IMG/VR virus record: IMGVR_UViG_3300005584_000023
Location: 1-31,248 of that record
Strand: one strand, 5' to 3'
Length of the DNA stretch: 31,248 nt
DNA from: a virus
The translations under genes and the position numbers were made by a program. This document shows, piece after piece, positions 3,972 to 27,324 of the stretch (positions within the stretch are counted from its first letter, which is position 1; each line of letters starts with the position of its first letter). The notes beneath the pieces are model-generated. The model searched no databases and was not told the DNA's origin. It worked only from the letters and a program-made list of their open reading frames with translations.

Positions 3972-3974
3972 AAA

Positions 3975-4265
3975 CTATCTCCTACGCTTCCAACGGATCG
4001 GACCAGCACTAGGGCGGGCGGCTTGTCGATTGGCAGTTGATTGTGCAGTTCGTTGATCTTGGGCCGCGCGTTTATTTCTAATCTCAGCATCACGTAAATC
4101 CTCGGCCAGTTTAACGCTATAATAAAGCAACTGGCTGATACGTGTTTCATCTGGAACAAAGCAATGAAAATGTGACATCAAATTGTAGCGACGTGCTTCT
4201 ATCAATTCTTCACTATAGGTTGGGAAAGAAATCGAGGACTCCAACGTTGAGTGTAATGGACTCAA
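3975..4265 (-). CDS. Small protein in tail-chaperone position, overlapping the preceding gene
   Basis: A 96-residue Arg/Ala-rich helical protein ends 4 nt before the tape-measure start. It overlaps the 3' end of the preceding gene by 53 nt in another frame. Many tailed phages carry two overlapping tail-assembly chaperone genes here (G/GT of lambda, similar pairs in Mu and P2), joined by programmed frameshifting; the position matches but I recognise no sequence similarity. The start is uncertain. TTG at 4265 has GAGG (4280-4283) 14 nt upstream, CTG at 4271 would have better spacing, and ATG at 4178 has no clear ribosome site. It could instead be translated only by frameshifting from the preceding gene. 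Confidence 0.65.
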   Translation of the reverse strand: MSPLHSTLESSISFPTYSEELIEARRYNLMSHFHCFVPDETRISQLLYYSVKLAEDLRDAEIRNKRAAQDQRTAQSTANRQAARPSAGPIRWKRRR

Positions 4266-5610: not shown

Positions 5611-6474
5611 TTAACGAAATAAACTACGAAATTCGGAGCCAAAATTCTGTCTTGCGCTGCCGCCAACTATTCCACCAAGCTCTGTTCCTAGAGTTCGTGG
5701 TAGATTAATCAAGCTGCGTGCGGCTCCGACCGTTTCTCGCACTGAGCCAAGACCTTCATCAACCAAAGAACGAACCTCTCTGATTGGCTGCAATACCTGG
5801 TTGACCGTGCCTCTAATGTTGTCAGCAACACCGCGTACGTTGCTAACGAATTGTCTAAATTGATTAAGTGGATTAGCCGCTCCACCTAGACCGTTCATAA
5901 TGGAAAAAGAAGTGCCTGCACCAACCTGGATAACATCTTCATCCACAGCAAAATCTGCTGTCACTGTAACAGGACTAGAACCATCGTAATTGTATGACAG
6001 TCCAGAGAACGTAGTAGGCCAGCAACCTAATGCACGACCTACCATAACGGGCGCTGTATTGGAAACATAGTCAAATGCAAATAGCGAAATGGGATGCTTG
6101 TAAATGGCAGGAATACCGTAGTTGTGTTCCTCATCTATAATGAGGTTTTCCCAGGAACGTAAATAACGCGTAACACCGTAGTTAATGTCTTCAAAAAACG
6201 TAATAGAGACGTTGGGAACAGACATAAAACGAGGGAAATTATGCCTTGCACCCGCTCTAAAACGTTGATCTGAGTCTATTTGCCGCACTGAAAACTCAAT
6301 ATTCTCCACCATACCAAAAGGTATAGTAGAGGTCCTAAGTAAACCCTGATATGGCACAGGAAATGAGGGTGTTCTAGTGCGAGGGATTAAATCAGGCAAA
6401 CGTACAACCCAGCGCCAAGAGGGTGCAGGTTCAGCCTTGCCACGCACTTGATTGAGATCAGGAATATAGGACAT
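5611..6474 (-). CDS. Second tail-tube-like protein, probable baseplate tube initiator
   Basis: A 287-residue protein following the tube gene. The first ~190 residues look like a tube fold: SVRQID and RHNFPRF segments, a FFEDINYGVTRYLRSWENL segment like the tube inner helix region, and a central LSYNYDG strand near the end of the domain. T4 gp54 and gp48 are tube-like proteins that cap the baseplate and nucleate tube polymerisation; this gene is likely their equivalent. The C-terminal ~90 residues are an amphipathic helical extension (repeated V-R-x-x-V patterns) absent from the tube protein, perhaps contacting the tape measure. ATG 6474 is chosen because AGGG lies about 10 nt upstream; a longer TTG start at 6498 has no ribosome site. 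Confidence 0.75.
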   Translation of the reverse strand: MSYIPDLNQVRGKAEPAPSWRWVVRLPDLIPRTRTPSFPVPYQGLLRTSTIPFGMVENIEFSVRQIDSDQRFRAGARHNFPRFMSVPNVSITFFEDINYGVTRYLRSWENLIIDEEHNYGIPAIYKHPISLFAFDYVSNTAPVMVGRALGCWPTTFSGLSYNYDGSSPVTVTADFAVDEDVIQVGAGTSFSIMNGLGGAANPLNQFRQFVSNVRGVADNIRGTVNQVLQPIREVRSLVDEGLGSVRETVGAARSLINLPRTLGTELGGIVGGSARQNFGSEFRSLFR

Positions 6475-6512
6475 TTTATATAGCCCTAAAAGCTTCAAAT
6501 AGAAGACATAAA

Positions 6513-6540
6513 TTAACCGGCCTAATTACAGGCCGGTTAA
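6513..6540 (-). terminator. Perfect 11-bp hairpin after the tube gene
   Basis: Stem TTAACCGGCCT/AGGCCGGTTAA with a 6-nt loop, 48 nt beyond the tube stop. On the minus strand it is followed by TTTATG rather than a long T run, so it may end transcription or protect the 3' end of tube mRNA. Confidence 0.6.
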
Positions 6541-6588
6541 TCATTCACCATCAGTGATAGATAACGTGCCTGCCACGGTCTCTATTGC

Positions 6589-7116
6589 TTATCGAATGGC
6601 GATATTACTCGGTTCATAATGGTCATATACAAAGCTCATGTTGACCAGATATGCCTGCGAGCTACTACCATCGTACTGAATAGAGGGCTTGCTTTGCGGT
6701 TGCAGACCGTAGAAGATCACTTCTTTAATAGCAAGGCCCGTGGTGTCATAGGTGATAAGACGCGGACCATCCAGAGCGTAAGAACGCTTGTATCCACCAG
6801 ACGTGCCTGAATTGGTGCCTGCGATAAACTCAAACCACGATTCAAACTGATTAGTGGTATCCATCGTGCGATCTTCAAGGTAGGCCACTGTAACCGTTCT
6901 TTCAAACGTACGACGACCACGAATATAGATCACATGACCATGCACAGGGACTTCAAAGGCTTCCTGTCCAGTGCCAGGATATTCAGCCTGTTGGCACTTA
7001 ACCACCATGTTACGGTCAGATGTTCCGCCTGGAATTGAGCCAAGAATAAACTCGAAGTCACTTGTAGTCATAATGTCGGGTAAGCCACGAACCCGGTCAA
7101 GAGAAATGCGAGGCAT
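6589..7116 (-). CDS. Tail tube protein
   Basis: A 175-residue protein directly downstream of the sheath gene, the standard sheath-tube order in myoviruses, and close in size to T4 gp19 (163 residues). It forms stacked hexameric rings through which DNA and tape measure pass. Visible features of the family are an N-terminal FEFILGSIPG strand, a central VHGHVIYIRGRRTFERTVTV beta region, a FESWFEFIAG helix and a C-terminal strand VNMSFVYDHYE. ATG 7116 has AGGAGA 6 nt upstream. A hairpin follows the gene, and a perfect palindrome separates it from the sheath gene, so the two may be expressed at different levels. Confidence 0.9.
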   Translation of the reverse strand: MPRISLDRVRGLPDIMTTSDFEFILGSIPGGTSDRNMVVKCQQAEYPGTGQEAFEVPVHGHVIYIRGRRTFERTVTVAYLEDRTMDTTNQFESWFEFIAGTNSGTSGGYKRSYALDGPRLITYDTTGLAIKEVIFYGLQPQSKPSIQYDGSSSQAYLVNMSFVYDHYEPSNIAIR

Positions 7117-7162
7117 ATAAGTTCTCCTATATCGATAGGACTTGTTAAATTAAAACCAACGT

Positions 7163-7190
7163 AGGCTGGGGTTTAATTAAACCCCAGCCT
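7163..7190 (-). terminator. Perfect 12-bp palindrome between sheath and tube genes
   Basis: AGGCTGGGGTTT and its exact complement flank an AATT loop, starting 5 nt after the sheath stop. The minus-strand T run (GGTTTTAATTT) begins only several bases after the stem, so it is a weak intrinsic terminator at best and may act as a 3' mRNA stabiliser or processing site. Confidence 0.6.
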
Positions 7191-7195
7191 TTGTA

Positions 7196-9493
7196 TTACT
7201 CTCCGTTGAGCAAGCCCACAATTTCAGAGAATGCCGCGCCTTGCTTGGTAATAACCGAGGTCAGTCGCACATACTTAACCGGCAACGTCGGCTCAAGAAT
7301 AAGATCAACATTCAATTGGCCGGAGTCTCTATGATACGGCTTATTGTTGTTGTCATCGGAAATAACCTCGAACCTACGCAGTCCACGAGCTTCCTTAATA
7401 GGCTGTAGGAAGTTTTCGCAAAGCCGCACAACCTGGAACTGAGTGTAAGGATCATGTGGCTCATACACTGTGTAATCCAGTGCATCAACCAAGCTTACCT
7501 CAATTGTGATAAGAAGACGACGCACAGAAATGTTCGACAAAGCGGAAGCTTTGCTTTGCAGCGTATCAGCACCCCAAATAACGTAACCCTTACCTGGCTT
7601 TTTGATAATCGGGTTAATCTGATTGGGAGAGATAAGCTGCAATTCGCCTTCGGTATATTCCTTACGCAGACCAATGATGTTCTTCATCAGACCACGATTA
7701 AGACCCGCTGGCGCAAACCATTCAGCCGCTACAGTATCATTGTAGGCAAATGTAGATGCAACGTAGCCTGACGGCGGAACATACATGGTGAGGTTGGTAA
7801 ATTCATCACGTATCTGCAAATCAGGCGTATAAATAGCCGCATATGTCGTGTTCAGATTAAGTGTATTGCGCCGATGACTATACGCATCCGCTGCACCCTG
7901 TTGCGCGGCTGGCATATCAAGAATGGCAAAGCAGTCATAACGATTTTCTGCAATAGAAACCATCTTGGTCTGCACAGCCACGTCATCATAACCGCAACCG
8001 ATCAGAATACGCACTGCATTCTTAGTACGATCTGCAAACGCATTCCAGCCAGTCATGATCTGCGAATTAAGCGGCACAACACCGTCATTACCACCCGCAA
8101 GCCACGTAATAGGTGTTGCACCCGCTGTAGAACTGGTTGGAAGTGTAGCCAAAATGCCCGCAGGATTGTTCAGGTTATAAACAACGCGAATAAGCGAGCT
8201 TCTCGTAGCACTGTTGTTAATGACTTCTTCTATAAACTGCTGACGACCAAAGCCATCAACCTGCTTATTGATAGAAACAACGTGCTTTTCCAGAGGCACT
8301 AACTGATTCGTGCGTTCATACACCCAAATTTCAAAGGTATCTTCCTTGGCAATACCTGTAAGCGTTTGTGTGTTGGTAACAGTCGGAATAGTAGCCGAAC
8401 CTGCTGTATTAATGATCTGCGGATCAATTAGATCAAAAATATCAGGCCCATCAACAGGCGCAACCAAGACAAGTTCTAAGTTATTAGCCTGCAAGAAAGC
8501 ATCCGACGTAGCGCCCATTGCAGTGATAAAGGCTGCACGAATATCAGCCATAGTCTGTGCGCCGGAAGTATTGTAAGCAACCGGACCAACCTGAACGCGG
8601 GTTCCCTGCAAATCAAGACCAGCCTGGAAAGCCTGATTGGCAACAGGCAAAGCAGAGAATGTAAGTTTACGGCGCTGCTTAACACCAATATCCAGATTAC
8701 GAATCTGAATGCCGATATCATTGGCCCAAGCACCGGGGTTTTCAGCGTACACATCAAACAATGCAGGACTGTCTTGGATAGAAACCGTCGCTTGCGATCC
8801 ACCCAGCGTAACAGTGACCGAAGAAATGGTCAGGTTAACACCTTCGGGAGACGTAATGCGGATGATACGGTCATCTGTCGCACTGGAACTGTTCTTTAGG
8901 ACAGTTGCCTTACCAAGAGACTTCTTTGCAGCGGTAAAGCCGGTTGCATAGGCTGCATTAATCTGATTGGTAATAGCATCGGCCAGCACTTGCATCGTAG
9001 CATCACTGCTAGTTGCGTACGTGGCAGAGAACGTAATAGGGTTGGTGCCATCCGTAATGGCAACCGCTACTTCGTTCAGAGATACCAATACAGCACTAAA
9101 CACTAGATGCTGATATTGAAATCCACCAGTGTTATAATCACCACCGCGACCCGAGGGGAATTGCGTAAACGAAGTGTTAACCGCAGAAGAACCTTCAAGG
9201 TCATTGGTAACAACAACGCCTGCGTGCTTCGCATCCTTAACAACGCGCTGAACCCACAACTGGCGACCAGTGGTAAGGAACGCTAAGCAACTATGGTGCC
9301 CATAACTCCAAGACGGATCGGGTTTACCGAACAGGTCCTGAAACTGATCTTTGCCACTAATAAAAGTGGTCTTCATAGGGCCACGTCGAGAAGCAAATAC
9401 CGCCGCACCAACCGATGTAGCAATCGCCTGGACGCGTTCAGAGAGATCAATCTCTCGCGGATAAACACCAGGAACTAAGTAAAACGCCGCCAT
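7196..9493 (-). CDS. Tail sheath protein
   Basis: A 765-residue contractile sheath protein, somewhat longer than T4 gp18 (659). The N-terminus YLVPGVYPREIDLS is the typical sheath opening, and the SRRGPMKTTFISGKDQFQDLFG segment matches the conserved early region. The C-terminal third holds the conserved core: a YVPPSGYVASTFAYND region and a GKGYVIWGADTLQ region, then VRRLLITIEVSL and a final mixed beta domain (last ~110 residues) that interlinks subunits in other sheaths. The central part (about residues 110-480) is a long set of beta-rich insertions that probably face outward. Start ATG 9493 has GAGGGAG about 8 nt upstream. It is the first of the sheath-tube-initiator series. Confidence 0.95.
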   Translation of the reverse strand: MAAFYLVPGVYPREIDLSERVQAIATSVGAAVFASRRGPMKTTFISGKDQFQDLFGKPDPSWSYGHHSCLAFLTTGRQLWVQRVVKDAKHAGVVVTNDLEGSSAVNTSFTQFPSGRGGDYNTGGFQYQHLVFSAVLVSLNEVAVAITDGTNPITFSATYATSSDATMQVLADAITNQINAAYATGFTAAKKSLGKATVLKNSSSATDDRIIRITSPEGVNLTISSVTVTLGGSQATVSIQDSPALFDVYAENPGAWANDIGIQIRNLDIGVKQRRKLTFSALPVANQAFQAGLDLQGTRVQVGPVAYNTSGAQTMADIRAAFITAMGATSDAFLQANNLELVLVAPVDGPDIFDLIDPQIINTAGSATIPTVTNTQTLTGIAKEDTFEIWVYERTNQLVPLEKHVVSINKQVDGFGRQQFIEEVINNSATRSSLIRVVYNLNNPAGILATLPTSSTAGATPITWLAGGNDGVVPLNSQIMTGWNAFADRTKNAVRILIGCGYDDVAVQTKMVSIAENRYDCFAILDMPAAQQGAADAYSHRRNTLNLNTTYAAIYTPDLQIRDEFTNLTMYVPPSGYVASTFAYNDTVAAEWFAPAGLNRGLMKNIIGLRKEYTEGELQLISPNQINPIIKKPGKGYVIWGADTLQSKASALSNISVRRLLITIEVSLVDALDYTVYEPHDPYTQFQVVRLCENFLQPIKEARGLRRFEVISDDNNNKPYHRDSGQLNVDLILEPTLPVKYVRLTSVITKQGAAFSEIVGLLNGE

Positions 9494-9545
9494 AATAAGG
9501 CTCCCTCGTCTAAATGTATTAACGCTACGTCAATTAAACATTGTA

Positions 9546-9737
9546 TCAATCAAAATTGCTAGATGCAGACTCCGTCGATTGAGTGCTGGCAGCGCCAATG
9601 TGACGAATGCCGGTTGGCAGGTTCCACAAGAACTTATCATCAACTTCACAGGTCAATCCAGGACCAAAATCCACGGAATCACCATCAGCCGCTCGTACAG
9701 TAATCTTGTTAGGCGTCATATTACGAAGAATAGCCAT
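9546..9737 (-). CDS. Small protein before the tail sheath, unknown
   Basis: A 63-residue protein beginning MAILRNMTPNKITVRAADGD, mostly beta strand with a Ser/Thr-rich end. ATG 9737 is preferred over an upstream TTG (9743) because AGGAG sits 8 nt before it, while the TTG would be almost on top of that site. It lies between two probable tail-completion proteins and the sheath, so it is probably a virion or tail-assembly component. I recognise no family. Confidence 0.7.
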   Translation of the reverse strand: MAILRNMTPNKITVRAADGDSVDFGPGLTCEVDDKFLWNLPTGIRHIGAASTQSTESASSNFD

Positions 9738-9752
9738 TATCAAAACTCCTAA

Positions 9753-10130
9753 TTAAGCCACAATAGCCTTAATTGTCACTGGATCGGTAATTCCTAGGTT
9801 TTTGACTTTAACCTCAGAAAAAACACCTGTTATCGTCATATGACGTTTAACAGGAATAACCAATGACGTTGTTACATTGGACACAGTGCAAGACAATGTA
9901 ACTTGAACTGGGGCCGACGACGTAATATGCAGAAACTCAACTACTGCGCCTAGTAAAATCTCAGATCTTGCATTGTTAGCACTGACATTGTTGGCAGCTA
10001 GTTCATGTGTATCATTGCTTATTTTAGCAACCGCTACAAGGTCAGTAGGGGCGTTCAATTCTTGTATATTACGTCGCGAAGATAATGTTGTAAGGGTTAC
10101 ACGTAATGATGTAAGGAGCGTGGCCTTCAT
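9753..10130 (-). CDS. Small beta-rich tail-region protein, unknown
   Basis: A 125-residue protein with alternating hydrophobic/polar residues typical of beta sandwich folds and no cysteine motif, enzyme motif or membrane segment. It is placed between the probable tail-completion protein (11-nt gap, tight coupling) and the 63-residue protein. By position it is likely a neck, tail-completion or decoration protein, but no sequence feature proves this. An AAAGG/AGGG purine stretch precedes ATG 10130. Confidence 0.75.
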   Translation of the reverse strand: MKATLLTSLRVTLTTLSSRRNIQELNAPTDLVAVAKISNDTHELAANNVSANNARSEILLGAVVEFLHITSSAPVQVTLSCTVSNVTTSLVIPVKRHMTITGVFSEVKVKNLGITDPVTIKAIVA

Positions 10131-10141
10131 AGCCCTAGCCT

Positions 10142-10834
10142 TTATTTCTGATATACTTTGCCACCTAAATTAGCTAAAGAACGCCCGCTTTCGTCCATCA
10201 CGACACTAGACAGGTTCAAATGAGTGCTGGATACAGACAGTTTTTTCGATGTGCTACCGTGATAGGTATCAATCGACATACTAAGTTCCATAACCATTGA
10301 TTCGCCAATCTCTTCAAATTCAAGGTCAGGGAAATTGATCTGTTGATCCATATTAACCTTGATATTGATTGTAGCCTGATCTTCGGCATCAATAACAAAA
10401 TCAAGGTAATGGTTTCTAGCAGCCAATAACCAATGCTGTGCCAGTGCTATGGTATCTGAGGCATCATCCGTTATGAACAACACTCTGAATGCGACAGTGG
10501 CAGGCATAAAGTTGTAGATAATCTCGGTCGTACTCTCTGGATCAACGTCAGATAGTATCTTAGGACCATACCTGCCACGTCTATGCAACACAAAAGGATT
10601 ATATCCTTGTGTATTGGTCTCCATTGTAGTCATGGTGTAGGCAAAGAATGGCTTTTTAATCTTGCGGTTCTGAGTAAACATAGCCCGGAAATGATTTGTG
10701 CCCCTTGTCTGCACAACGGGCACAATCTTGTCAGGGAAAAACCGCTTTAATTGCGATGCAACACCTGCTATGGAAGTGATAAAAATATCAGATAGTTTCT
10801 GATTATCCTTACGGTCTCCGTGAAATCCGCTCAT
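10142..10834 (-). CDS. Probable tail-completion / sheath-terminator protein
   Basis: A 230-residue protein in the position where T4 has gp15, the neck/tail sheath stabiliser (between head genes and sheath). Features: a helical start, an RGRYGPKILSDVDPESTTEI strand region, then a helix-rich core (TIALAQHWLLAARNHYLDF), and a beta-rich end containing LEFEEIGESMVMELSMSI. Tail terminators and sheath stabilisers share such a mixed fold, but I cannot see a diagnostic motif. Translation starts at ATG 10834 with no Shine-Dalgarno in the usual place; a possible pseudoknot occupies that position (10840-10868). Other structural roles such as head-tail connector are possible. Confidence 0.75.
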   Translation of the reverse strand: MSGFHGDRKDNQKLSDIFITSIAGVASQLKRFFPDKIVPVVQTRGTNHFRAMFTQNRKIKKPFFAYTMTTMETNTQGYNPFVLHRRGRYGPKILSDVDPESTTEIIYNFMPATVAFRVLFITDDASDTIALAQHWLLAARNHYLDFVIDAEDQATINIKVNMDQQINFPDLEFEEIGESMVMELSMSIDTYHGSTSKKLSVSSTHLNLSSVVMDESGRSLANLGGKVYQK

Positions 10835-10839
10835 GATGT

Positions 10840-10868
10840 GGAAACGCGGGCAAAGTTTCCCCGCCCGC
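10840..10868 (-). promoter_or_regulatory. Possible H-type mRNA pseudoknot at a ribosome-binding position
   Basis: On the minus strand the order is GCGGGC-GG-GGAAAC-TTT-GCCCGC-GTTTCC. GCGGGC pairs with GCCCGC and GGAAAC with GTTTCC, in interleaved order, so the two 6-bp stems can form together as a pseudoknot with loops of 2, 0 and 3 nt. It starts 11 nt after the preceding stop and ends 5 nt before ATG 10834. A GGGA sits directly on its 5' side, so folding could bring that sequence to a normal Shine-Dalgarno distance. Confidence 0.5.
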
Positions 10869-10879
10869 TCCCATAGTTG

Positions 10880-11707
10880 TTACGCAGCACGGCGTTTGGC
10901 AAGGATACGCCGACTATCCTTCAAAGACTCGTCAGTACCATCAATGCTAAGCTTATTGGCAAGTGCCCGCAGCTTGGCATCAACAGGGGTAGGCTTTTTA
11001 GACGACAGAGTTTGTCTTGAAGACGATGTTCCACCCATGGGCTTGGTATCATCAACAGAGATAGGCTCTTCGTCTGCTTCGTCGTTTTCTTCATCGTCAG
11101 GTACATCAAAATCAGGAATGTCTGCACTAGACGAATCAGTGTGATCGTCAACGTCGTCGTATTCTTCGCTATATTCCATTTCCGAAGCAATCGCATCAAT
11201 TGCTCCTTCCATATCAGAAGGCTGAACTTCTTCGTCCATGTCTTCTTCATCCGACGCATCATCCATATTCGCAGCGTCGAGTGCTTCTTGTGTATTGGCA
11301 TTCATTTCTTCGATACCGCCGATTAAATCGTCAGCATCATCCGCTTCCATGGCAGAAGCAAAAGACTTGAATGCAGAACGCCAATCGCCTGCCTTAGCTG
11401 CATCGTATGCAATAACCAGCATATCACCAGAAAGACTGTACGGTGCCTTTACGTTAGCAACGGTTTCTTCCGGCGCGGGTGCCGGGGCTACTTCACTATC
11501 AGTAGTTCCATTACCGTGCTTAAGAACCAATGCGCGCAGATCAGATTCAAGATCATCCAAATCTACATCAGGGTTTTGCTTACTAATTGCCTTATAGAGA
11601 GCCTCGGCACAAGAAGTTGCGGTCTCCCGCATAGCAGAAAACTTAAACTTCTGCTTAGGAGTAACCTTCTTCTTGCGAAAAGCCTCCACGGCTTTTGGTT
11701 TATTCAT
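10880..11707 (-). CDS. Acidic structural-region protein after the major capsid gene, unknown
   Basis: A 275-residue protein with a basic, lysine-rich start (residues 1-25), a helical part to ~150, then a very acidic region (about 145-215, many Asp/Glu with DEEDMDEE runs) and a basic C-terminus. Charge-patterned proteins of this kind are found among phage scaffolding, internal head and head-tail completion proteins. It lies directly after the major capsid gene, with a hairpin between. ATG 11707 has AGGAGA 5 nt upstream. I recognise no family; an internal head protein or second scaffold component is the leading guess. Confidence 0.8.
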   Translation of the reverse strand: MNKPKAVEAFRKKKVTPKQKFKFSAMRETATSCAEALYKAISKQNPDVDLDDLESDLRALVLKHGNGTTDSEVAPAPAPEETVANVKAPYSLSGDMLVIAYDAAKAGDWRSAFKSFASAMEADDADDLIGGIEEMNANTQEALDAANMDDASDEEDMDEEVQPSDMEGAIDAIASEMEYSEEYDDVDDHTDSSSADIPDFDVPDDEENDEADEEPISVDDTKPMGGTSSSRQTLSSKKPTPVDAKLRALANKLSIDGTDESLKDSRRILAKRRAA

Positions 11708-11739
11708 TGTACTCTCCTAACTAAGCAAATTTAACTCGC

Positions 11740-11770
11740 AGGCAGGCTGATTTAACTAATCAGCCTGCCT
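11740..11770 (-). terminator. Strong 13-bp hairpin after the major capsid gene
   Basis: AGGCAGGCTGATT and its exact complement flank a 5-nt loop, 7 nt after the capsid stop. On the minus strand it is followed by GCGAGTTAAATTTG, with no T tract, so mRNA 3' protection or processing fits at least as well as intrinsic termination. Confidence 0.6.
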
Positions 11771-11777
11771 GAGTTCG

Positions 11778-12884
11778 TCAAATACGCTTAGCTTTAATAA
11801 CCGACCGCGCGTTGGCGATCACCATGGAGAGGTCTTCAAACAAGAAGTGACCACGCGCCGGAATGCCATCCGAGAACTGGTTCACTTCATAAGACTGCAC
11901 CGGACCACGATCCGTATAACCGCCATGCATAGACGATTCACCGATCATGTAAGACTCACCGGCTTCAAGAACCTTAAGCTGTTCCTGACGGAAACCATCA
12001 GTCACAAACGTAAGGCCCAGCATATCGCCAAGCTCACCCGTGGTAACAATTTCATACTTGGTCATCGGATCGAACCAAGCAGAGAACTGCGTGTTGCCAG
12101 TGATATCATTCCAGAAATCAGCGGCCATCAGGTAATACACAGGCACGATGTTGAAGCGCGTAAGATCGGTACGCAGTTCCGTTAAGCTGGTAGGATTAAG
12201 ACCACCCGAAAGATACTTAAGCTGGTGATCGATTCCAACCGTGTTATCAGCAAGCAGCTTCCAATGACGATCTTCCGTCGTCATAATAGCTTCCTGAGCT
12301 TCCAGGAACTTCTCTTCCAGAATGTCCTGGCTGCCCTGGTTCATATCGCGATTGGTAACGCGAATGTTGGCCGACACGATAAACTCAGGCGGAAACAATT
12401 CAGAATCGCGTACATACTGCGGATGTATCATGGAAGCTGATGCCATCATAACAGCGGAGACGTTCTTCTTCCGCACCCGAATACGCGGAAAATTGCCCTG
12501 CTCAAGCGGATTCTTTTCCAGGAAGCGCCGCATAAAGCCTTCACGATCCGCAGACTCAGTAATCTGTCCTGCAATCGTGGAGCCAAGTGCTGCCCACTTA
12601 CCCGATGTGCGATCATTATACGCAGCAACGAGAAGTTCGCGGCGTTGCTTCGCAGCCATCGCTTTCGTCGGCACGTTGTCAGGCTGTGCGTCCGACATAT
12701 CGAGAGTACCATTGGCAGCCATGGTCATCAGATGACCAACGGTGCGGAAAAGGTCCTTCTTATCATAACCGGACAGATGACCATCACGACCCACGATACT
12801 ATCGCGAGTACCTGGAATACGCGCTTCCTTGCCCGGCGTCGGTGGGGCACCGTTACCACCCCTAAAAGTAAAAGACCGCTTCAT
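11778..12884 (-). CDS. Major capsid protein
   Basis: A 368-residue protein downstream of the protease and scaffold genes, in the usual order portal-protease-scaffold-capsid. It is predicted to have the HK97 fold and to form the icosahedral shell. The first ~60 residues (Gly/Pro/Arg-rich) may be a disordered or processed arm. Family-like features are the RRFLEKNPLEQGNFPRIRVR segment (N-arm/E-loop region), a central DRHWKLLADN helix, the YLMAADFWNDI segment, and the C-terminal P-domain end FEDLSMVIANARSVIK. ATG 12884 is chosen: GGAG is 7 nt upstream, whereas TTG 12890 would abut it. The gene lies between two hairpins (11740-11770 and 12929-12946), consistent with separately controlled high expression. 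Confidence 0.92.
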   Translation of the reverse strand: MKRSFTFRGGNGAPPTPGKEARIPGTRDSIVGRDGHLSGYDKKDLFRTVGHLMTMAANGTLDMSDAQPDNVPTKAMAAKQRRELLVAAYNDRTSGKWAALGSTIAGQITESADREGFMRRFLEKNPLEQGNFPRIRVRKKNVSAVMMASASMIHPQYVRDSELFPPEFIVSANIRVTNRDMNQGSQDILEEKFLEAQEAIMTTEDRHWKLLADNTVGIDHQLKYLSGGLNPTSLTELRTDLTRFNIVPVYYLMAADFWNDITGNTQFSAWFDPMTKYEIVTTGELGDMLGLTFVTDGFRQEQLKVLEAGESYMIGESSMHGGYTDRGPVQSYEVNQFSDGIPARGHFLFEDLSMVIANARSVIKAKRI

Positions 12885-15341: not shown

Positions 15342-16121
15342 TCAAGACTCCCATGTCATTATTTCATTAGTCACTGCCGATAGGTAAGCAGGCTGTTTTA
15401 CAGAGCTTAATTCAAATCCAATGACGTCACGGCCCTGTAAAAAGACTAATTGGTTTTTATCCGCCGTATCTTTCCTGATAGACATACGGGGTTGGGCTAA
15501 ACTAATATGCTCACAACCTGCTTTAGCACCATGATGGGCTTGGCAAAAAGAACAAGTGAAGTGCCCTGTCCACGCCCCCATGGAATATGCGTTACGCTCA
15601 CCTGTTAAAATCTGATTGGCTAAAACAGGATCGCGAGAACGATCAAATGCGGTTAAAAGAATAACCTTCCACAAATTACCACGACTGCGTTGCATGGGTC
15701 TAAAAGCAGAGGCTAGAATAATGCCTTTTGCTTTCGTATGATCTCTATTAACATGATCGATGTACGTAGGCTTGCCACGCCACGTCTGATAGGACAGTTG
15801 TCCAGCTTCCACATTAGCTTTAACAAGCTCTTGATATGGAAAGCCTACTCCATTCCTATTAGGCAGATCGGAAGGCATAATAATGACTGGAACAACTAGA
15901 TAGTCATTCATCTTTGCCGAGATATTATACTGTTCAGCAAAGAATGGCAGCCATTGTTGTGCATCAACCAATGTGCTTTTAGTCAGGTCCAATAGATTAT
16001 CACCAGAGGACAGACTCAGATTGTGCTTTTGCTTTTCAATAGAAAAACACTCAACAGGGATACCGTTGAGACTAGCATCAGCGTACACAGAGAAATTGCG
16101 ACCAAATGCGCCTTTTGACAT
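15342..16121 (-). CDS. Head maturation (prohead) serine protease
   Basis: A 259-residue protein located between portal and scaffold/capsid genes, as T4 gp21 is. Prohead proteases cleave scaffold and capsid N-termini before DNA packaging. Motifs: GKPTYIDHVNRDHTKAKGII with candidate catalytic His at 123, and AYSMGAWTGHF with candidate Ser at 180; the SMG segment is typical. It is followed by a cysteine cluster (C190, C193, H196/H197, C203, H205), seen in large-phage proteases as a zinc-binding insertion next to the serine. The N-terminal ~70 residues may be a pro-segment. The gene begins 11 nt after the portal stop with AAGGGA about 9 nt upstream. Identity is from motifs and position. Confidence 0.85.
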   Translation of the reverse strand: MSKGAFGRNFSVYADASLNGIPVECFSIEKQKHNLSLSSGDNLLDLTKSTLVDAQQWLPFFAEQYNISAKMNDYLVVPVIIMPSDLPNRNGVGFPYQELVKANVEAGQLSYQTWRGKPTYIDHVNRDHTKAKGIILASAFRPMQRSRGNLWKVILLTAFDRSRDPVLANQILTGERNAYSMGAWTGHFTCSFCQAHHGAKAGCEHISLAQPRMSIRKDTADKNQLVFLQGRDVIGFELSSVKQPAYLSAVTNEIMTWES

Positions 16122-16132
16122 CCCAATATCCC

Positions 16133-19100
16133 TTAACTATTAGTCTCTAAATTACCGAACATAGTCTTATTCAGCATAAAATGATAAGCACGCTGGCGTG
16201 CGCCACGCGCATTCAATTCTTTAGCATTATCTCGCTTGGCTAAATTAGCCAGAACTGGAGAAGCCTTCTTATTAGCGCGCTCTTCCATGACATTACGACC
16301 CTTTCTGGAAAGAACTTTCTGTGTATCAGGGTCTTTCATCTCTATGGATTCAAAGGAACGATTGCGGTTTCTTTGTGTACGTAGATAACCAGAGGTAGAA
16401 GCACCAGAGAAAAGCTGTGCGGCTTCTTCTTCGGGATTTTTCGGCAGTTTTTTCTTGTATGCGTCAACCAACTTACGCAGTTTAACGTCTTCATCCAACG
16501 ATTGCATAATATCAGTAATAGGTAATCCGCCTGCGGCTGCCCAAATACGCAATGGAATAGGCAGGCCACTACTTTGCTGTAGTTCACTTAACATGCTGAT
16601 ATAAGCAGAGTCCGCTTCGGGCTTTAATGCTTTATGCCAATGCATTTTAGGCATATGCAGTTTGGTGATATCAACCTCATTATCATCATTGCTGAGATTG
16701 ACAAAATTGGACGATCCAATAACAGCTTGGTATTTCATAACACCAGCTTTAGACATAATGCCCTGGATGCGACCGTCGTTGAACGAACCTTTGGTTTCGA
16801 TTTTCTTTTCGCGGATTTCAAAGCCGTTTTCCATAGCAATTAATGGGAACAAGCGTTGATAGAACACTTTACGTGTGATAAATTCACGAAACGCTCTGAT
16901 TTGCTCCAAGAATACAGATAGGCTTGTTTCCATATTATTGTAGGTATTATGTACGACCATTCCATTGGCAACGTAAGCGGGTTCATGGCCTTTTTGAATA
17001 GAAAGATCAAAAGTTGGTCTATTACCACCTTTAGAAATAGACTTTATAGGCACAAAACGATAGCCTAGGTCAAATAGTGTTACAAGCTTTTTCCATGCTT
17101 TGCGTGAAATAAGCTTCAAATCAACTAGGAATTTATCAAATAAGCCGCTGCCATACGCATCATACCCAAGTTGTTTGCGGCCATGACAGATGTTCTTAAA
17201 CCCACGCAAATGAATAACATCACCGTCGTCATCAGCAAAATCAATGCCATGACGGTCATGCTTTATTTTACGCCGGTTTAATAAATCTACTAGCCATTGA
17301 CACGGAATACCGTATTTACAACGACCTCGGCGTTCTGTGTTAGGGGCATATCGCTTACTAACCATGTATGGAGCGATTTTGTTCCATAACACATCAGCAT
17401 CTATACCACTAACTTGCACTCTGTTATTGTATTTATTTGATACAATCGTATGTGCTAATAGTAATGCCTGAAATTGCTCTAAAGTCCTATTACTTGCTGA
17501 TATTATCAATATGTTTTTGGCAATAGAACCGTCACCTTCAATATAAGCAGCCATGAAAGCAATTTGTGATTGTTCATCAGCTTGCATAATTGACCAAGGA
17601 ATAGTCTTATAATGTGAGGCTGTCTTTTCTTGATTCCCATCACAGTACATTCCGAGCGTATCCAGCCATTCGACCAGTGTCTTTGAACAAATAATAAGCT
17701 CGTAGCAGTTTTTATTTTGGTTAAAACTATATGGATAAGGAGACAGGTCTACCAATCTATTTGCTGCACCGTAGGTATTGAAAACTTTCCCAAGAGCAGA
17801 ACGCACTCTTTCAATAAAGGCTTCATCTGAATTACTAAAGCGGATTTGATAGCCTTTTCTGCTTATCGAACCTTCAGCCTGAATAGCGCCTAAGAAAAAT
17901 GCTAGACTGGGGGTCATGAACTTGGGCTTTTGCAAAATTTTACGTTGCCCGCCATGCAAAGCATCATCACTTGGATCAGGCAAATTTAACACCAAAGGAG
18001 TAGTACGTACCATACCTTTGGTATTTATGCATAGCAAATCACCGCGTTTTAGCGCGTCCATTCTCTCCCAATCAGTTTCACCATTGCTTGTATTAAATAC
18101 AAGCATTTGATGATTGTGGGTGGCTTGTGCAACATTACCAAGCCCTGTGGTGATTTTTATAGTGGGTTTTACGCCATTATAAAACCACTTAACAGCTTTT
18201 TCTACTCCATAACGTGACAAGACTTTGAACTTTGTGTCTTGCCAGCGTCCATTTTTAGGATCGCCTATAGGACCTATTTCAAGCAAACCTTTACTGGTTG
18301 GAACAATAGTGTTTCCAACCATGCAGGATTCCCCCGATAAAAAGCCATCAGAGATACCAAGGGCACGCATTTTCGCGCCAGAGGCGAAGTCATATATCTC
18401 ATCATATCGCCAAAAATCAGAACCTGATCTGATTTCACTTGTTTGAATACCAGGACGAGTAGCTACCACCGCGCCCGTAGGATCAACGTCCGCCTTAATG
18501 AACATATCGACAATGCTTGTCAATTCTTCATTATTAGGCTCCCATTCTTCATCACCTACGACTAGGTGCAGAATGGATTTTTGTCTACGGTATGACAGAT
18601 CAATGGTTCCACGCAGCAAAGCCTTTTCCCAAAGCCATATTGGAATAATGCGCCTATAATATGACATGCCTTTAGTTGTAGTCGCAAATGTGCGCCGTGC
18701 AACATAAAGCGTAAACTTCGGGTCGAGAGGAAATTTGCCTACTCTTATCATATCCTTCATATCGTCGCCATACTTAGCAAAGGCTTCTTTGATACGAGAA
18801 TCGGTTGAATTAAATAGTTTCTTTTGCGCCTCTGGTATTTGCACGTCAATAATCGGATCACGTCCATAAATAGGCAGTTCCGTTATAGTGCAGACATCAG
18901 CGTTCTGTGGCATAATAGACTTGACGCGCTTTTCAACGTCATCGAAATTCGCGTAGCCAATAAACATTCCGTCTACTTGATATTCTGTAGCCAACTCAGG
19001 CAATAGAGTTTTGACGTGAATCGCTTCCAATGATGAAGCAAACGTGCGTAACATGTTCTGATCTGGCAAGCCAGACAAAGTAAAATCAGAAAATGGTAAT

Positions 19101-19372
19101 TGCGCTTGCAAGTCTACCGCAGCACCCGCTATAGGATCGTGCAAATACATATCACGATATAGCCGACGCATAGCCAATTCGTTGTTTTCTGGTACAAATC
19201 CATCCAGAATAGGCTTTTCATACATTCCCGCTGTGGCTGCACCAGAACCATAACCACCAGATGACCCACCAGGAATAGCACCACCCGCTCCAGAAAAACC
19301 AGAGCGAGTTTGGATTTGTCTACCACCTTCTCGCGAAGCGAATACTCCGTACTTACCAGCTCCTTTAAGAAT
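16133..19372 (-). CDS. Portal protein, interrupted by an intein; apparent ATT start
   Basis: The portal is the dodecameric ring at the head vertex through which DNA is pumped. The gene lies downstream of terminase and upstream of the protease, as expected. Numbered from ATG 19225, it encodes 1,030 residues, of which 301-760 are an intein, leaving a 570-residue extein typical of large-phage portals. Extein features include YRRQKSILHLVVGD and the joined junction SDGFLSGES/TYNNMETSLS, which matches a conserved portal stem region. The ORF extends 49 codons further upstream, through a Gly/Ser-rich coding stretch, to ATT 19372. A perfect AGGAGG lies 5 nt before that ATT, and no ATG/GTG/TTG occurs between it and 19225. 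ATT is therefore the preferred start, giving 619 residues after splicing; ATG 19225 has no usable ribosome site. Confidence 0.9.
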   Translation of the reverse strand: MLKGAGKYGVFASREGGRQIQTRSGFSGAGGAIPGGSSGGYGSGAATAGMYEKPILDGFVPENNELAMRRLYRDMYLHDPIAGAAVDLQAQLPFSDFTLSGLPDQNMLRTFASSLEAIHVKTLLPELATEYQVDGMFIGYANFDDVEKRVKSIMPQNADVCTITELPIYGRDPIIDVQIPEAQKKLFNSTDSRIKEAFAKYGDDMKDMIRVGKFPLDPKFTLYVARRTFATTTKGMSYYRRIIPIWLWEKALLRGTIDLSYRRQKSILHLVVGDEEWEPNNEELTSIVDMFIKADVDPTGAVVATRPGIQTSEIRSGSDFWRYDEIYDFASGAKMRALGISDGFLSGESCMVGNTIVPTSKGLLEIGPIGDPKNGRWQDTKFKVLSRYGVEKAVKWFYNGVKPTIKITTGLGNVAQATHNHQMLVFNTSNGETDWERMDALKRGDLLCINTKGMVRTTPLVLNLPDPSDDALHGGQRKILQKPKFMTPSLAFFLGAIQAEGSISRKGYQIRFSNSDEAFIERVRSALGKVFNTYGAANRLVDLSPYPYSFNQNKNCYELIICSKTLVEWLDTLGMYCDGNQEKTASHYKTIPWSIMQADEQSQIAFMAAYIEGDGSIAKNILIISASNRTLEQFQALLLAHTIVSNKYNNRVQVSGIDADVLWNKIAPYMVSKRYAPNTERRGRCKYGIPCQWLVDLLNRRKIKHDRHGIDFADDDGDVIHLRGFKNICHGRKQLGYDAYGSGLFDKFLVDLKLISRKAWKKLVTLFDLGYRFVPIKSISKGGNRPTFDLSIQKGHEPAYVANGMVVHNTYNNMETSLSVFLEQIRAFREFITRKVFYQRLFPLIAMENGFEIREKKIETKGSFNDGRIQGIMSKAGVMKYQAVIGSSNFVNLSNDDNEVDITKLHMPKMHWHKALKPEADSAYISMLSELQQSSGLPIPLRIWAAAGGLPITDIMQSLDEDVKLRKLVDAYKKKLPKNPEEEAAQLFSGASTSGYLRTQRNRNRSFESIEMKDPDTQKVLSRKGRNVMEERANKKASPVLANLAKRDNAKELNARGARQRAYHFMLNKTMFGNLETNS
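16946..18325 (-). mobile_element. Intein with LAGLIDADG homing endonuclease inside the portal gene
   Basis: A 460-residue full-length intein spans residues 301-760 (ATG 19225 numbering). Splicing features: Cys301 after GES; block-B ATHNHQML with T369 and H372; C-terminal block ending MVVHN (H759-N760) and Thr761 as the first C-extein residue. Two dodecapeptide endonuclease motifs are intact, LGAIQAEGSI (E451) and AAYIEGDGSI (D565), so the element may still home. It splits the portal at a conserved stem site, a favoured place for inteins because loss disrupts an essential protein. Confidence 0.95.
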
Positions 19373-19638: not shown

Positions 19639-22080
19639 CTATCGACCACCTCGTGAAAATACATTACCACCACTGCCACCGCTACTACCGCCTCCACCAT
19701 AGGAACCGACAGCTACTATATTGCTTCCAGACCTTGCTCCACCCATTCCTGATCCACCAGAACTATAAGAAACAACCACGCCTAAATCGCGATGTTTGTG
19801 TGTTCCAGTCTCTACCGTCATTAACTCTTGGATTTCTTCATCAGTTATCATGGCATGTCCAAGAGCTAATGCTCTGAACATATCGTCTGTATAACCGTAG
19901 CCTTTATCAACCTTTTTGCCCATTGAATCTTCAACAGTCAAAGACTGTATCATCATATGCGATACAGGGAAACCTTCCATACTAAATGGATAGTTTCTAG
20001 CAGCTACTTTGAAAGCCTCAGACAGTTTAAGCTCTCCGCGCGGTAATTCAATACGCTGATTGAAAATATCCTCGCGCAGTTCAAGCATATCGCGATAGGT
20101 GACAGAGTAAATGCTGGTAGAAATGCTCGTTTTATCCTCAATGTCTTGCAGCATCTTGACAGAGTTCCATCTATCAGCGCAGACATAAGTAATGTTCATC
20201 TTTTCAATCAACGGCATGATGATTTTATCATAAACCGATGTAAAGTTCACAGGCTCTCCCGACTTTGGGATAACCTCAATAAGAGCATCAACTATGCACT
20301 GGACATAATCACCTTTGTCTTCCAAATGTAGAACACACCCTGCAAAACTATCGTGTGTATGCCCTGCATCTAGTGCAAGCATTCTTGGCGGTGGGAATTT
20401 ATCGTTTACAATACGGCTTTTAACAACTACTTTAGCGCCTGTGGTTACAACACCGTGCGAAGATTTCATTTGCATCTGTGTTGTTCTTACTGCATTCTGG
20501 CGTCTCTTGTTAACGCAAGCCAGAATACTTTTACGATCATGGATAAAGGAATATGCAGAATCAGGTGGCTGTGCTAGAAAGTTGCGCTTGAAAAGGACAG
20601 GATCATTTTTAGCAGTCTGTTCTAAATCAACCGGCTTGATAGTGGGGTTCATATCAAACACAGTGTATCTAAACGAATATGTGTTGTTTGATCCCTCTGC
20701 CTCTTTAACCAGTCGCACCATCTTATCACGCGATGATGACGGCGAGGATATATTGCAGAACATAGGTGGTGGAATGTTGTAGTGACCTGCATCATACAAC
20801 TGTCTTACGGCCGCACGAACGGACAGAAAGCTATTCTCTAGGGCAGAATAGGTTTCATCAGGGTCGAGCTTAACAGATTCTTTTGCTTTGGTGAAAAACC
20901 AGCCCAATTCGTCAATGCCACCAAGGAAGGTGGTGCGACCACGCATGTTCTTTTTGTCAGGGCTGATAGCTGACACAACCATGCGGCGGTGTGAATACTT
21001 AAAGAACGTGCTTTTTAGATCGTAGAATTGCTCACCATATCGTTTGCCATGGTAATCTAGTAGCTTATGGTATTCTTGAAACCAAGGGCTACTGTGCAAT
21101 ATCTCAGATAGCGGATCAAAGATATTATCACGCACCTGAGAGGATGATGTAGCTGTGAACAATCCATAAAGGATTTCGTTAGGCATTAGGTTTAGAACAC
21201 GCACAGGATTTTGCAATTTAAGATAACGATGGATCACATAAGCGGCTATAAGAGTTACAGTTCGACTCTTACCACCACGCTGACCTGCAAGCCCTGCTAG
21301 TTCATTATATCGTTTGGTGCCGCGCTTCCAGGAATCCGCCCTGGTCTCACCACAAAACAGACATTTGCCATGTTCGTATAGTGTAACCTTTTCCAAAATC
21401 TGGTCATACGTGGCATCTGTAGGGATACAATGGGCATAATCAACATCTGTGCATTTTGGATTGGTGCAAAAATCGTTGAACAGGTTAATGCCGATTTCGA
21501 CCTGTTTTGCAAATGGTGTGTAATTGACGTATTGTGGTGACGTGCAAAACTCCATGAAGTTTGGAGCTTCTGGCATATCTCTATCATCAACACGCAAATC
21601 GATTTGCGCGCCATTAGGTGCGTTGGTTAGTGATGCTACAATCTTTTCAAGATCATAAAGGTCTGAGCCTTCATCACTAAACTCAGACACTTTCAAGACG
21701 CGCTTCTTGTTTGTTTTTAATACATCTTGCTTGATACGCTCAAAATCTTCTTGGGCGTTTCGAACAATCAGCTTCTTCTTGCTGCTTTTTACTCTAAGCA
21801 ACGCAGAACCCGGCTCTACAGTGTCTTCGGAAAAATCATCGAGAGACAAGATAGTGCTGGTGGCCTTGTATCGTCCGCATACATAGTCAAAGGCTTTGTC
21901 TGGATCGCTGCATTTAGTGAATCTCTTGCAGTTTAGACAGTTCTCACTTGGTTGACCCAAAACTATCTTTCTTCTAGGCAAAGCGATAGGGCTGACCTTT
22001 ACACTGCCTGTAGCTTTTTTCTTTTTACGGGATGTAGATACAGCGCTCTCTCGCGGAGAACTATCAGAAATGCGTGCCAT
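19639..22080 (-). CDS. terL: Terminase large subunit (ATPase-nuclease)
   Basis: An 813-residue DNA packaging motor, longer than T4 gp17 (610). It has an N-terminal ATPase with Walker A GLAGQRGGKS (Lys271) and Walker B FLGGIDELGW (D390-E391), and a C-terminal RNase-H-like nuclease with the acidic residues D571 (LALDAGH), D636 (CADRWNS) and D732/D733 (YTDDMFRAL). Two probable zinc-binding sites are unusual: C48, C51, C57, C68 near the start and C205, C210, C218, C240, C243 before the Walker A. The last ~40 residues are Gly/Ser-rich, mirroring the Gly/Ser-rich start of the portal. A 10-bp hairpin immediately before the start codon overlaps its AGGT ribosome site. No separate small terminase subunit was recognised. 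Confidence 0.95.
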   Translation of the reverse strand: MARISDSSPRESAVSTSRKKKKATGSVKVSPIALPRRKIVLGQPSENCLNCKRFTKCSDPDKAFDYVCGRYKATSTILSLDDFSEDTVEPGSALLRVKSSKKKLIVRNAQEDFERIKQDVLKTNKKRVLKVSEFSDEGSDLYDLEKIVASLTNAPNGAQIDLRVDDRDMPEAPNFMEFCTSPQYVNYTPFAKQVEIGINLFNDFCTNPKCTDVDYAHCIPTDATYDQILEKVTLYEHGKCLFCGETRADSWKRGTKRYNELAGLAGQRGGKSRTVTLIAAYVIHRYLKLQNPVRVLNLMPNEILYGLFTATSSSQVRDNIFDPLSEILHSSPWFQEYHKLLDYHGKRYGEQFYDLKSTFFKYSHRRMVVSAISPDKKNMRGRTTFLGGIDELGWFFTKAKESVKLDPDETYSALENSFLSVRAAVRQLYDAGHYNIPPPMFCNISSPSSSRDKMVRLVKEAEGSNNTYSFRYTVFDMNPTIKPVDLEQTAKNDPVLFKRNFLAQPPDSAYSFIHDRKSILACVNKRRQNAVRTTQMQMKSSHGVVTTGAKVVVKSRIVNDKFPPPRMLALDAGHTHDSFAGCVLHLEDKGDYVQCIVDALIEVIPKSGEPVNFTSVYDKIIMPLIEKMNITYVCADRWNSVKMLQDIEDKTSISTSIYSVTYRDMLELREDIFNQRIELPRGELKLSEAFKVAARNYPFSMEGFPVSHMMIQSLTVEDSMGKKVDKGYGYTDDMFRALALGHAMITDEEIQELMTVETGTHKHRDLGVVVSYSSGGSGMGGARSGSNIVAVGSYGGGGSSGGSGGNVFSRGGR

Positions 22081-26082: not shown

Positions 26083-27324
26083 CTAATCAAATAGTTGGCG
26101 CATTTTTTCGGCTGGATGCTCTGTAACAATAGTATGAGCAAACCGAATGCGCGATTCTGCTATTTTGAAGTAGCCTTTGTCCAGTTCTATGCCCACGAAC
26201 CTGCATCCTTCCAACATAGCAGCTATGCCTGTTGATCCACTACCCATAAACGGGTCAAGTACTATTGTGTTGTAAGGAGCAACCAAGCGGATCAGATAGC
26301 GCATTAACCCAACAGGTTTAACCGTTGGATGATTATTTGTCGATAGATGATCTTCTCTTTGTTCACCTTCCCATTTCTTACGCATCATCAACGGCGTTGT
26401 GCTGTGGGTTGCGGATGTTCTTTTTATAGGAAGGCCCTCAGTGCCCCATTCACGCTCTGCTTGTGTTATTTTAGGTTGGTAGAAAAACCGACTTATTTCA
26501 TTAGCAGGGTTGCTGGCATTGAATATTTTACCCGATTCAGGGTCCATAATCAGATGGCTAGGAAATCTGCCGTCTTTGTTCAAAATGGGAATATTATCAT
26601 CAACGAATTGTTCGTTATTCAACGATTTGATAGGAATGATGCGTTTTCTTGATTGCTTCATGTCATGTGCGAATGCGTTAGACAGCGGTATGCGTGCGCC
26701 TTGAATATTCAAGGCACCGACGCCATACTTCATGACATTTTCTGTAATCGTTCCCTCAGTAGGCTTACGACACAAGGCTATAAGTTCAACACGAGGTAGA
26801 AGACTAGTACCCCAACCTGTCCATTTCTTCGCTAGATCAGTCTGCGGATGATTCCCGCCCATATGCACGTAGTGTTTTTTAATATCTACACCTAGCTTGC
26901 GATCTATGTACCTATCAATACGCATGTTCTTAGGGCTAGATATACCATATACCCATTGTATACAGTCATGCACCTGAAATCCTGCCATGCGGATTGCTAG
27001 TGTGCCGATATCATATGTTCTAGCACTAAAGAAGGCTAAGCACCACCCACCGGGTTTTAGAACGCGGTACGCTTCTTTCCAGAAGGAGGGTTGCGGTACG
27101 CTATTGTCCCAATCTTTCCCAAAGTATCCTTTAGTAGCCTTACCTTTGTAGTCTTTGCCTTTGGCCCAAGCCTTGAGCATAGCCGTTGCATCTGGTGGTA
27201 TAGAGGTAAGTCCGTAAGGAGGGTCTGAAATCAGAACATGGATGGATTTGTCCTTTCGTTTAGACAAAACCTCCATATTTTCAGATCGGTATAAAGTGTA
27301 AGGACCGTTTTTAATTCGTCGCAT
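26083..27324 (-). CDS. DNA N6-adenine/N4-cytosine methyltransferase, beta class
   Basis: A 413-residue enzyme with the catalytic DPPY at residues 34-37 and the S-adenosylmethionine-binding DPFMGSGSTGIA at 357-368, i.e. catalytic motif before the cofactor motif, as in beta-class enzymes (N6_N4 Mtase family). A NHPTVKPVGLMRYL segment precedes the cofactor motif, as usual in this class. No endonuclease gene is next to it, so it is probably an orphan that modifies phage DNA against host restriction or for regulation. The middle ~200 residues (150-340) are large and may hold target recognition. AGG lies about 9 nt before ATG 27324. Confidence 0.93.
   Translation of the reverse strand: MRRIKNGPYTLYRSENMEVLSKRKDKSIHVLISDPPYGLTSIPPDATAMLKAWAKGKDYKGKATKGYFGKDWDNSVPQPSFWKEAYRVLKPGGWCLAFFSARTYDIGTLAIRMAGFQVHDCIQWVYGISSPKNMRIDRYIDRKLGVDIKKHYVHMGGNHPQTDLAKKWTGWGTSLLPRVELIALCRKPTEGTITENVMKYGVGALNIQGARIPLSNAFAHDMKQSRKRIIPIKSLNNEQFVDDNIPILNKDGRFPSHLIMDPESGKIFNASNPANEISRFFYQPKITQAEREWGTEGLPIKRTSATHSTTPLMMRKKWEGEQREDHLSTNNHPTVKPVGLMRYLIRLVAPYNTIVLDPFMGSGSTGIAAMLEGCRFVGIELDKGYFKIAESRIRFAHTIVTEHPAEKMRQLFD

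What the first reader, a model, noticed from the sequence alone, without database searches (positions are those of the whole stretch)
16946..18325. Full-length homing intein inside the portal protein gene
Both splice ends (Cys; His-Asn/Thr), the THNH block-B motif and two intact LAGLIDADG motifs with their acidic residues are visible. Splicing would join SDGFLSGES to TYNNMET in a conserved portal stem segment. Inteins in phages are best known from terminase, polymerase and nucleotide-reductase genes; a portal insertion is less usual and could block head assembly if splicing fails.
Basis: partly seen in the sequence, partly recalled or inferred. Interest (0 to 1): 0.72.

Follow-up and report, generated by a model that had tools for sequence, protein, structure and literature searches.

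The report
Homing intein in phage portal gene
A large tailed phage's gene for the portal, the ring through which DNA enters the virus head, carries a 460-residue insert with all the marks of a self-splicing, self-copying element (an intein); the same short stretch of related portals turns out to be a landing zone hit by many different inteins, including back-to-back and split ones.

Summary
Confirmed. The minus-strand ORF 16133-19225 (1030 aa) is a jumbo-myovirus portal interrupted by a canonical class 1 intein, Cys301-Asn760 (16946-18325), with splice blocks A, B, F, G, +1 Thr and a two-motif LAGLIDADG endonuclease with both acidic residues. Eleven GenBank portals lack exactly these residues. 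The predicted structure (pLDDT 90.6) matches full-length inteins (TliVMA, Z about 30). Splicing and homing are inferred, not shown.

Portal inteins are not new: C1 mycobacteriophages carry them, but at two other sites. The wider result is that in this clade the portal is an intein hot spot: 21 inteins at ten positions, five of them within 11 residues of a highly conserved segment (FL^SGES^TY^N^NME^TSL). One contig has three inteins in one portal ORF, two abutting; two lineages have split inteins with a putative endonuclease gene between the halves; TerL and a nucleotidyltransferase gene near the portal carry relatives. The window shares its exact site only with one split intein. The 'stem' placement is unsupported; the site is the loop before a long helix. 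New member of a known kind, inside an apparently undescribed cluster.

The parts
16133..19225 (-). portal precursor ORF (N-extein + intein + C-extein), 1030 aa
   Evidence: (phrog_16240 E 2.9e-130)
18326..19225 (-). N-extein, portal residues 1-300 (ends SDGFLSGES)
16946..18325 (-). class 1 intein with LAGLIDADG endonuclease, 460 aa
18323..18325 (-). Cys1, N-terminal splice nucleophile (block A CMVGNTIVPTSKGLLEI begins here)
   Evidence: Cys in 25 of 25 aligned sequences
18110..18121 (-). block B TxxH (Thr69, His72)
   Evidence: Thr 24 of 25, His 25 of 25
17345..17923 (-). LAGLIDADG endonuclease domain, about residues 135-327 (range aligned to I-DmoI)
17864..17899 (-). LAGLIDADG motif 1, FFLGAIQAEGSI, catalytic Glu151
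   Evidence: Glu/Asp in 24 of 25
17522..17557 (-). LAGLIDADG motif 2, FMAAYIEGDGSI, catalytic Asp265
   Evidence: Asp in 25 of 25
16946..17011 (-). blocks F and G (FDLSI...YVANGMVVHN): Asp440, penultimate His459, terminal Asn460
16136..16945 (-). C-extein, 270 aa, begins with +1 Thr (TYNNMETSLSVF)
19639..22080 (-). large terminase subunit gene, upstream of the portal on the same strand, without intein here although relatives carry TerL inteins
15342..16121 (-). head maturation protease gene, directly downstream of the portal
   Evidence: phrog_18299 E 6.6e-71

Best explanation
The 460 residues are a mobile class 1 intein inserted between residues 300 and 301 of a 570-residue portal protein of a PaBG/Lu11/RHEph12-related jumbo myovirus. 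After translation the intein should excise itself by the standard route: Cys1 N-S acyl shift aided by block B Thr/His, transesterification to Thr+1, Asn460 cyclisation with His459, then an acyl shift that leaves SDGFLSGES-TYNNMET joined. At the DNA level its LAGLIDADG endonuclease should cut intein-free portal alleles at the joined site, so that recombinational repair copies the intein in. It is one of a family of related inteins that repeatedly invade the same conserved portal segment and packaging genes nearby. Shown: anatomy, fold, empty sites, family and site clustering. Inferred: splicing, cutting, homing.
For: Sequence: Intein_splicing and LAGLIDADG_3 above curated cut-offs; all class 1 residues present and conserved among 25 aligned family members (Cys1 25/25, Thr69 24/25, His72 25/25, Asp440 24/25, Asn460 25/25; Glu/Asp151 24/25; Asp265 25/25). 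Empty site: 11 homologous portals (PaBG, Lu11, RHEph12, NCTB and others, 30-38% identical) align across the junction with no insertion. Structure: AlphaFold2 pLDDT 90.6, pTM 0.90; Foldseek best TliVMA intein 7qss E 4.7e-23; VIA-align Z 31.5 to 7qsu, 28.5 to 2cw7, 21.6 to Mxe GyrA intein, 16.9 to I-DmoI on residues 135-327. Open frame with no stop. Mobility of the family: related inteins at ten portal sites, in TerL and in a nucleotidyltransferase gene; inteins at portal site 266 from three contigs form one supported clade (97/94), as expected for site-specific homing.
Against: No splicing or cleavage assay. The record is one 31,248-base viral contig and no close relative of this phage was found, so presence/absence polymorphism of this very allele is not seen; the nearest inteins are only 40-42% identical. 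Intein G+C (0.396) is only slightly below the extein (0.425), so composition gives no strong sign of recent transfer.
Confidence: 0.9

Rival explanations
1. It still splices but is no longer mobile: the endonuclease has lost activity or its target, and the intein persists only by vertical descent.
For: No empty or occupied alleles of close relatives were found; the window's branch is long (1.14 changes per column), so homing may be old.
Against: Both catalytic acidic residues and the full endonuclease fold are intact; decay would usually break this domain first.
Confidence: 0.2
2. The insert is a native portal domain or a Hint domain that does not splice (for instance a BIL-like or autoprocessing domain).
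For: Hint folds also occur in non-intein proteins (Hedgehog hit Z 19.9).
Against: Exact absence in homologues, C-terminal His-Asn followed by Thr, an endonuclease domain, and the same kind of insert at other sites of the same gene.
Confidence: 0.02
3. Splicing is conditional and works as a checkpoint: the portal becomes competent only when the intein leaves, timing head assembly.
For: Inteins occupy the portal repeatedly at a conserved loop that may line the DNA channel; two neighbouring packaging genes, portal and TerL, are both targets.
Against: Preference for conserved sites is fully expected of selfish homing; nothing here tests regulation; most portals of the clade lack any intein.
Confidence: 0.06

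Closest known systems
Portal (PORT) inteins of cluster C1 mycobacteriophages (Bixzunavirus; Kelley et al. 2016, PMC5050341)
   Same: Inteins in portal proteins; Alice gp83, an empty C1 portal, is a distant homologue of this portal family (E 4.5e-13).
   Different: They sit at two other places: Rahel between ...IRHW and CRLFY near the N-terminus, Colt between ...IKFS and TLNLR; the window is at SGES|TYNN. Earlier literature makes portal inteins known, not this allele.
TerL inteins of Lupandier/jumbo phages (PaBG paper, PMC7412058) and of Xanthomonas phages PhiXhv-12/16
   Same: Related intein; PhiXhv TerL inteins are the best GenBank match, 30% identity over all 460 residues, E 2e-47.
   Different: Different gene (near the portal) and different sites: YA|CVGQRAGKS, AGQR|SGKS, or the DAG motif. 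The window TerL is empty.
Inteins in a nucleotidyltransferase gene of other uncultured phages (L098, L100-L103, L111), next to the portal in L111
   Same: 38-41% identical to the window intein; grouped with it at 80/91 in one tree, not starred.
   Different: Inserted at REFTFN|TLMWR of another gene; in L111 the portal itself has no intein.
Split inteins with an endonuclease gene in between ('fractured genes', Dassa et al. 2009, known here from citing papers and memory; MIJ3 PolB, PMC6892783)
   Same: L032-L034 and L135 portals are split in this way, L033 at exactly the window site.
   Different: The window intein is contiguous, with an internal LAGLIDADG endonuclease.
Haloarchaeal MCM inteins at four close sites (PMC10643990)
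   Same: Several inteins competing for nearby sites in one essential protein.
   Different: Replicative helicase, not a virion protein; the portal cluster has five sites within 11 residues and one abutting pair.

Membership tests
Class 1 intein | Nucleophile (Cys/Ser/Thr) as first residue | tested here: met
   Cys1 at 18323-18325
Class 1 intein | Block B TxxH | tested here: met
   Thr69, His72
Class 1 intein | Block F Asp and block G His-Asn, then +1 Cys/Ser/Thr | tested here: met
   Asp440, His459, Asn460, Thr+1
Class 1 intein | Hint fold | tested here: met
   Z 21.6 to Mxe GyrA intein, 31.5 to TliVMA intein
Class 1 intein | Homologous host proteins without the insert align across the junction | tested here: met
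   11 portals
Class 1 intein | Autocatalytic splicing | not testable with these tools
   needs expression
LAGLIDADG homing endonuclease | Two motifs with acidic catalytic residues | tested here: met
   Glu151, Asp265; PF14528 in two stretches
LAGLIDADG homing endonuclease | LAGLIDADG fold | tested here: met
   I-DmoI Z 16.9 on residues 135-327
LAGLIDADG homing endonuclease | Cuts the intein-free allele | not testable with these tools
   needs a cleavage assay
Phage portal protein (PHROG 16240) | Sequence match of the host protein | tested here: met
   E 2.9e-130
Phage portal protein (PHROG 16240) | Portal fold | tested here: met
   tested on homologue L024, not on the joined extein: lambda portal Z 19.4, G20c E 5.1e-9
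C1 mycobacteriophage PORT intein alleles | Same insertion site | tested here: not met
   Colt and Rahel sites differ

The most novel reading that the evidence does not exclude
The loop before the long helix of the portal, likely the DNA-channel (tunnel-loop) region, is a shared target of several intein lineages whose homing sites overlap, ending in back-to-back inteins; and splicing there is conditional, so that intein removal gates when the portal can nucleate a head.
Probability: 0.07. Interest if true: 0.85.

Novelty: new member of a known kind. Interest (0 to 1): 0.52.

Why it matters
The window adds a new intein allele in an essential virion protein. More useful is the set it belongs to: ten insertion points in one phage portal family, one ORF with three inteins of which two abut with no extein residue between them, and portals split into two genes that would have to be joined by trans-splicing. 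These give natural material for testing how neighbouring inteins compete for target sites, in what order abutting inteins splice, and whether an obligatory splicing step limits assembly of a DNA-packaging ring. For annotation it warns that jumbo-phage portals and terminases can be mis-sized or appear broken because of inteins.

Tried and rejected
Single-sequence scan of viral contigs with the whole window ORF found nothing; profile scans were needed. Alice gp98 and gp89 were tried as the C1 portal and rejected; gp83 is the portal. Tunturi_5's long portal insert was checked as a possible intein; it is largely an Ala/Gly-rich stretch without intein motifs. A profile search of PDB sequences with the portal alignment gave only chance hits, so the portal fold rests on the homologue model. 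Cellular relatives: one genome-contig scan gave only weak matches (best 27% over part of the intein, no full-length match above 25%), none closer than the phage inteins. RNA introns or other Rfam families in the window: none. The methylase at 26083-27324, whose Pfam match is stretched, was read through and shows no intein blocks. Dassa 2009 and Novikova 2016 are not held, so earlier portal inteins there cannot be excluded. 'Portal intein' as a phrase is in no held paper. My first context script printed wrong frames for some loci; those lines were discarded and redone.

Full report
OBSERVATION. The minus-strand ORF 16133-19225 encodes 1030 residues with no internal stop. Residues 301-760 begin with Cys and end His-Asn, followed by Thr; the DNA coordinates are exactly 16946-18325. 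The excised stretch passes Pfam's curated cut-offs for Intein_splicing (39.8 bits against 35.8) and LAGLIDADG_3 (44.5 against 22.5). The host protein is a portal: phrog_16240, E 2.9e-130, in two stretches, the best one ending at the insert. Gene order along the minus strand is terminase large subunit (19639-22080), portal, head maturation protease (15342-16121), an ATPase-like protein, a virion structural protein and the major head protein: a normal head-packaging module. The record is a viral contig of 31,248 bases.

EMPTY SITE. Eleven GenBank portals that are 30-38% identical to it (PaBG, Lu11, RHEph12, NCTB, Dickeya JA33, Yoloswag, BcepSauron, HRDY3, GR7B, Afa-NA1, PhiXhv-16) align straight across the junction, for example FLSGEA-TYSN in PaBG against FLSGES|TYNN here. 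Twenty-nine intein-free IMG/VR portals were collected too.

FOLD AND ACTIVE SITES. An AlphaFold2 model of the intein from 25 aligned family members has mean pLDDT 90.6 and pTM 0.90. Its best solved matches are full-length inteins with endonuclease domain: TliVMA (Foldseek E 4.7e-23; Z 31.5 and 29.7), intein homing endonuclease II 2cw7 (Z 28.5), PhoVMA (Z 28.3), PI-PfuI (Z 23.4); mini-inteins follow at Z about 21, and I-DmoI at Z 16.9 on residues 135-327. Cys1, Thr69, His72, Asp440, His459, Asn460 and both endonuclease acids, Glu151 and Asp265, are present and are conserved in nearly all relatives. This is a class 1 intein by the definitions in PMC7765530. Splicing and cutting themselves were not tested.

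RELATIVES AND THE HOT SPOT. Scans of IMG/VR with portal and intein profiles brought in many portal genes with inteins. Excising them in a script and aligning the exteins places 21 inteins, split and mini ones counted, at ten positions of the window extein: 170, 186, 222, 224, 266, 296, 300, 302, 303 and 306 (printed values minus 57, because the script read 57 codons upstream of the start). Five lie within 11 residues, FL^SGES^TY^N^NME^TSL. Five of ten random sites falling in some window of 11 residues has probability 6e-5, or 4e-4 if sites are limited to positions where Ser/Thr/Cys is common; the second figure is the fairer one, and neither corrects for how the loci were found. The 26-residue stretch 285-310 is more conserved than 99.6% of such stretches. 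Insertion where the host protein cannot easily change is the usual habit of inteins (established knowledge). The window's exact position, 300|301, is otherwise occupied only by the split intein of L032-L034.

THREE UNUSUAL ARRANGEMENTS IN RELATIVES. First, L019 (IMGVR_UViG_3300005935_000023) has a single open frame, 5842-11949, 2036 aa, with three full-length inteins: one at site 296, then SGDATYN, then two inteins joined end to end (...GLVVHN|CQIGE...) at site 303. The three are 37-41% identical to each other, so this is not a recent tandem duplication, and the locus has no N. The third has a degenerate block G (YNSQCFQTHN). Misassembly is not excluded. Second, L032-L034 and L135 have portals cut into two genes: N-extein plus intein N-half, then a separate ORF (653 and about 464 aa; the first matches homing-endonuclease PHROGs, both match DUF7487), then intein C-half plus C-extein. 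This is the fractured-gene layout of split inteins. Third, L109 carries a 148-residue mini-intein and a full-length one in the same portal.

FAMILY. The best GenBank match of the window intein is in TerL of Xanthomonas phages PhiXhv-12/16 (30%, E 2e-47). Closer relatives (about 41%) are L019's third intein and inteins in a nucleotidyltransferase-like gene of other uncultured phages. Trees put the window with site-303 portal and nucleotidyltransferase inteins (93/95 for the larger group; no starred branch fixes its exact place). Inteins of site 266 from three contigs form one clade (97/94), which fits site-specific homing; sites 296 and 303 do not form single clades in these trees, so repeated invasions or site shifts are possible. 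End branches are long, so the deep branching is uncertain. Cellular relatives in one scan are far weaker.

WHERE IN THE PORTAL. A model of homologue L024 (mean pLDDT 66.9) has the portal fold (lambda Z 19.4, G20c Z 17.2). The insertion corresponds to the loop before the long helix 376-414. In HK97-type portals this is about where the tunnel loop lies (my knowledge, not tested).

KNOWN OR NEW. Six portal inteins of C1 mycobacteriophages were reported in PMC5050341. I located C1 examples in Rahel and Colt, at sites unlike the window's, in a portal that is a distant homologue. TerL inteins in the PaBG group are also published (PMC7412058). I found no held paper that describes inteins in this portal clade, a cluster of portal sites, or abutting inteins; the held library is incomplete. 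Close multiple sites with interference are known for haloarchaeal MCM (PMC10643990).

HOW COMMON. Of the 80 best portal loci, eight carry a portal insert (L018-L022, L032-L034); the ranking favoured intein carriers because the query held an intein, so 10% is an upper guide.

VERDICT. The window feature is a genuine, probably active intein: a new member of a known kind. The surrounding hot spot, seen only through related contigs, is what raises the interest.

Noticed in passing
L019:5842-11949 (IMGVR_UViG_3300005935_000023): One portal ORF of 2036 aa with three full-length inteins; the second and third abut with no extein residue between them, and the third has a degenerate block G (YNSQCFQTHN).
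   Followed up: partly
L033:5731-10107 (also L032, L034) and L135:3837-7662: Portal gene split into two ORFs by a split intein, with a separate putative endonuclease ORF (DUF7487; PHROG homing endonuclease for L033) between the halves.
   Followed up: partly
L098-L103, L111 (e.g. L111:3228-7109): Inteins 38-41% identical to the window's in a nucleotidyltransferase-like gene, inserted at REFTFN|TLMWR; in L111 this gene follows an intein-free portal.
   Followed up: partly
TerL genes of L003, L008, L011, L013, L028, L043, L108: TerL inteins at several sites: the Walker A region (AGQR|SGKS, YA|CVGQRAGKS) and the DAG motif; the window TerL is empty.
   Followed up: partly
L109:4335-4778: 148-residue mini-intein without endonuclease in the same portal gene as a full-length intein.
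   Followed up: partly
window 5611-7116: Two neighbouring genes (5611-6498 and 6589-7116, minus strand) both match the tail tube family phrog_45.
   Followed up: no
window 26083-27324: N4/N6 DNA methylase whose Pfam match is stretched by about 140 residues of non-matching sequence between motifs; no intein blocks seen.
   Followed up: partly
window 1-4200: Few long ORFs here, mostly on the plus strand, in contrast to the minus-strand structural block that follows.
   Followed up: no
L212, L214 (Mycobacterium phage Alice): Alice gp83 is a C1 portal homologous to this clade; gp90 shares phrog_2774 with the window's protease and gp92 shares phrog_2522 with its capsid, in line with a published C1-jumbo phage link.
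   Followed up: partly
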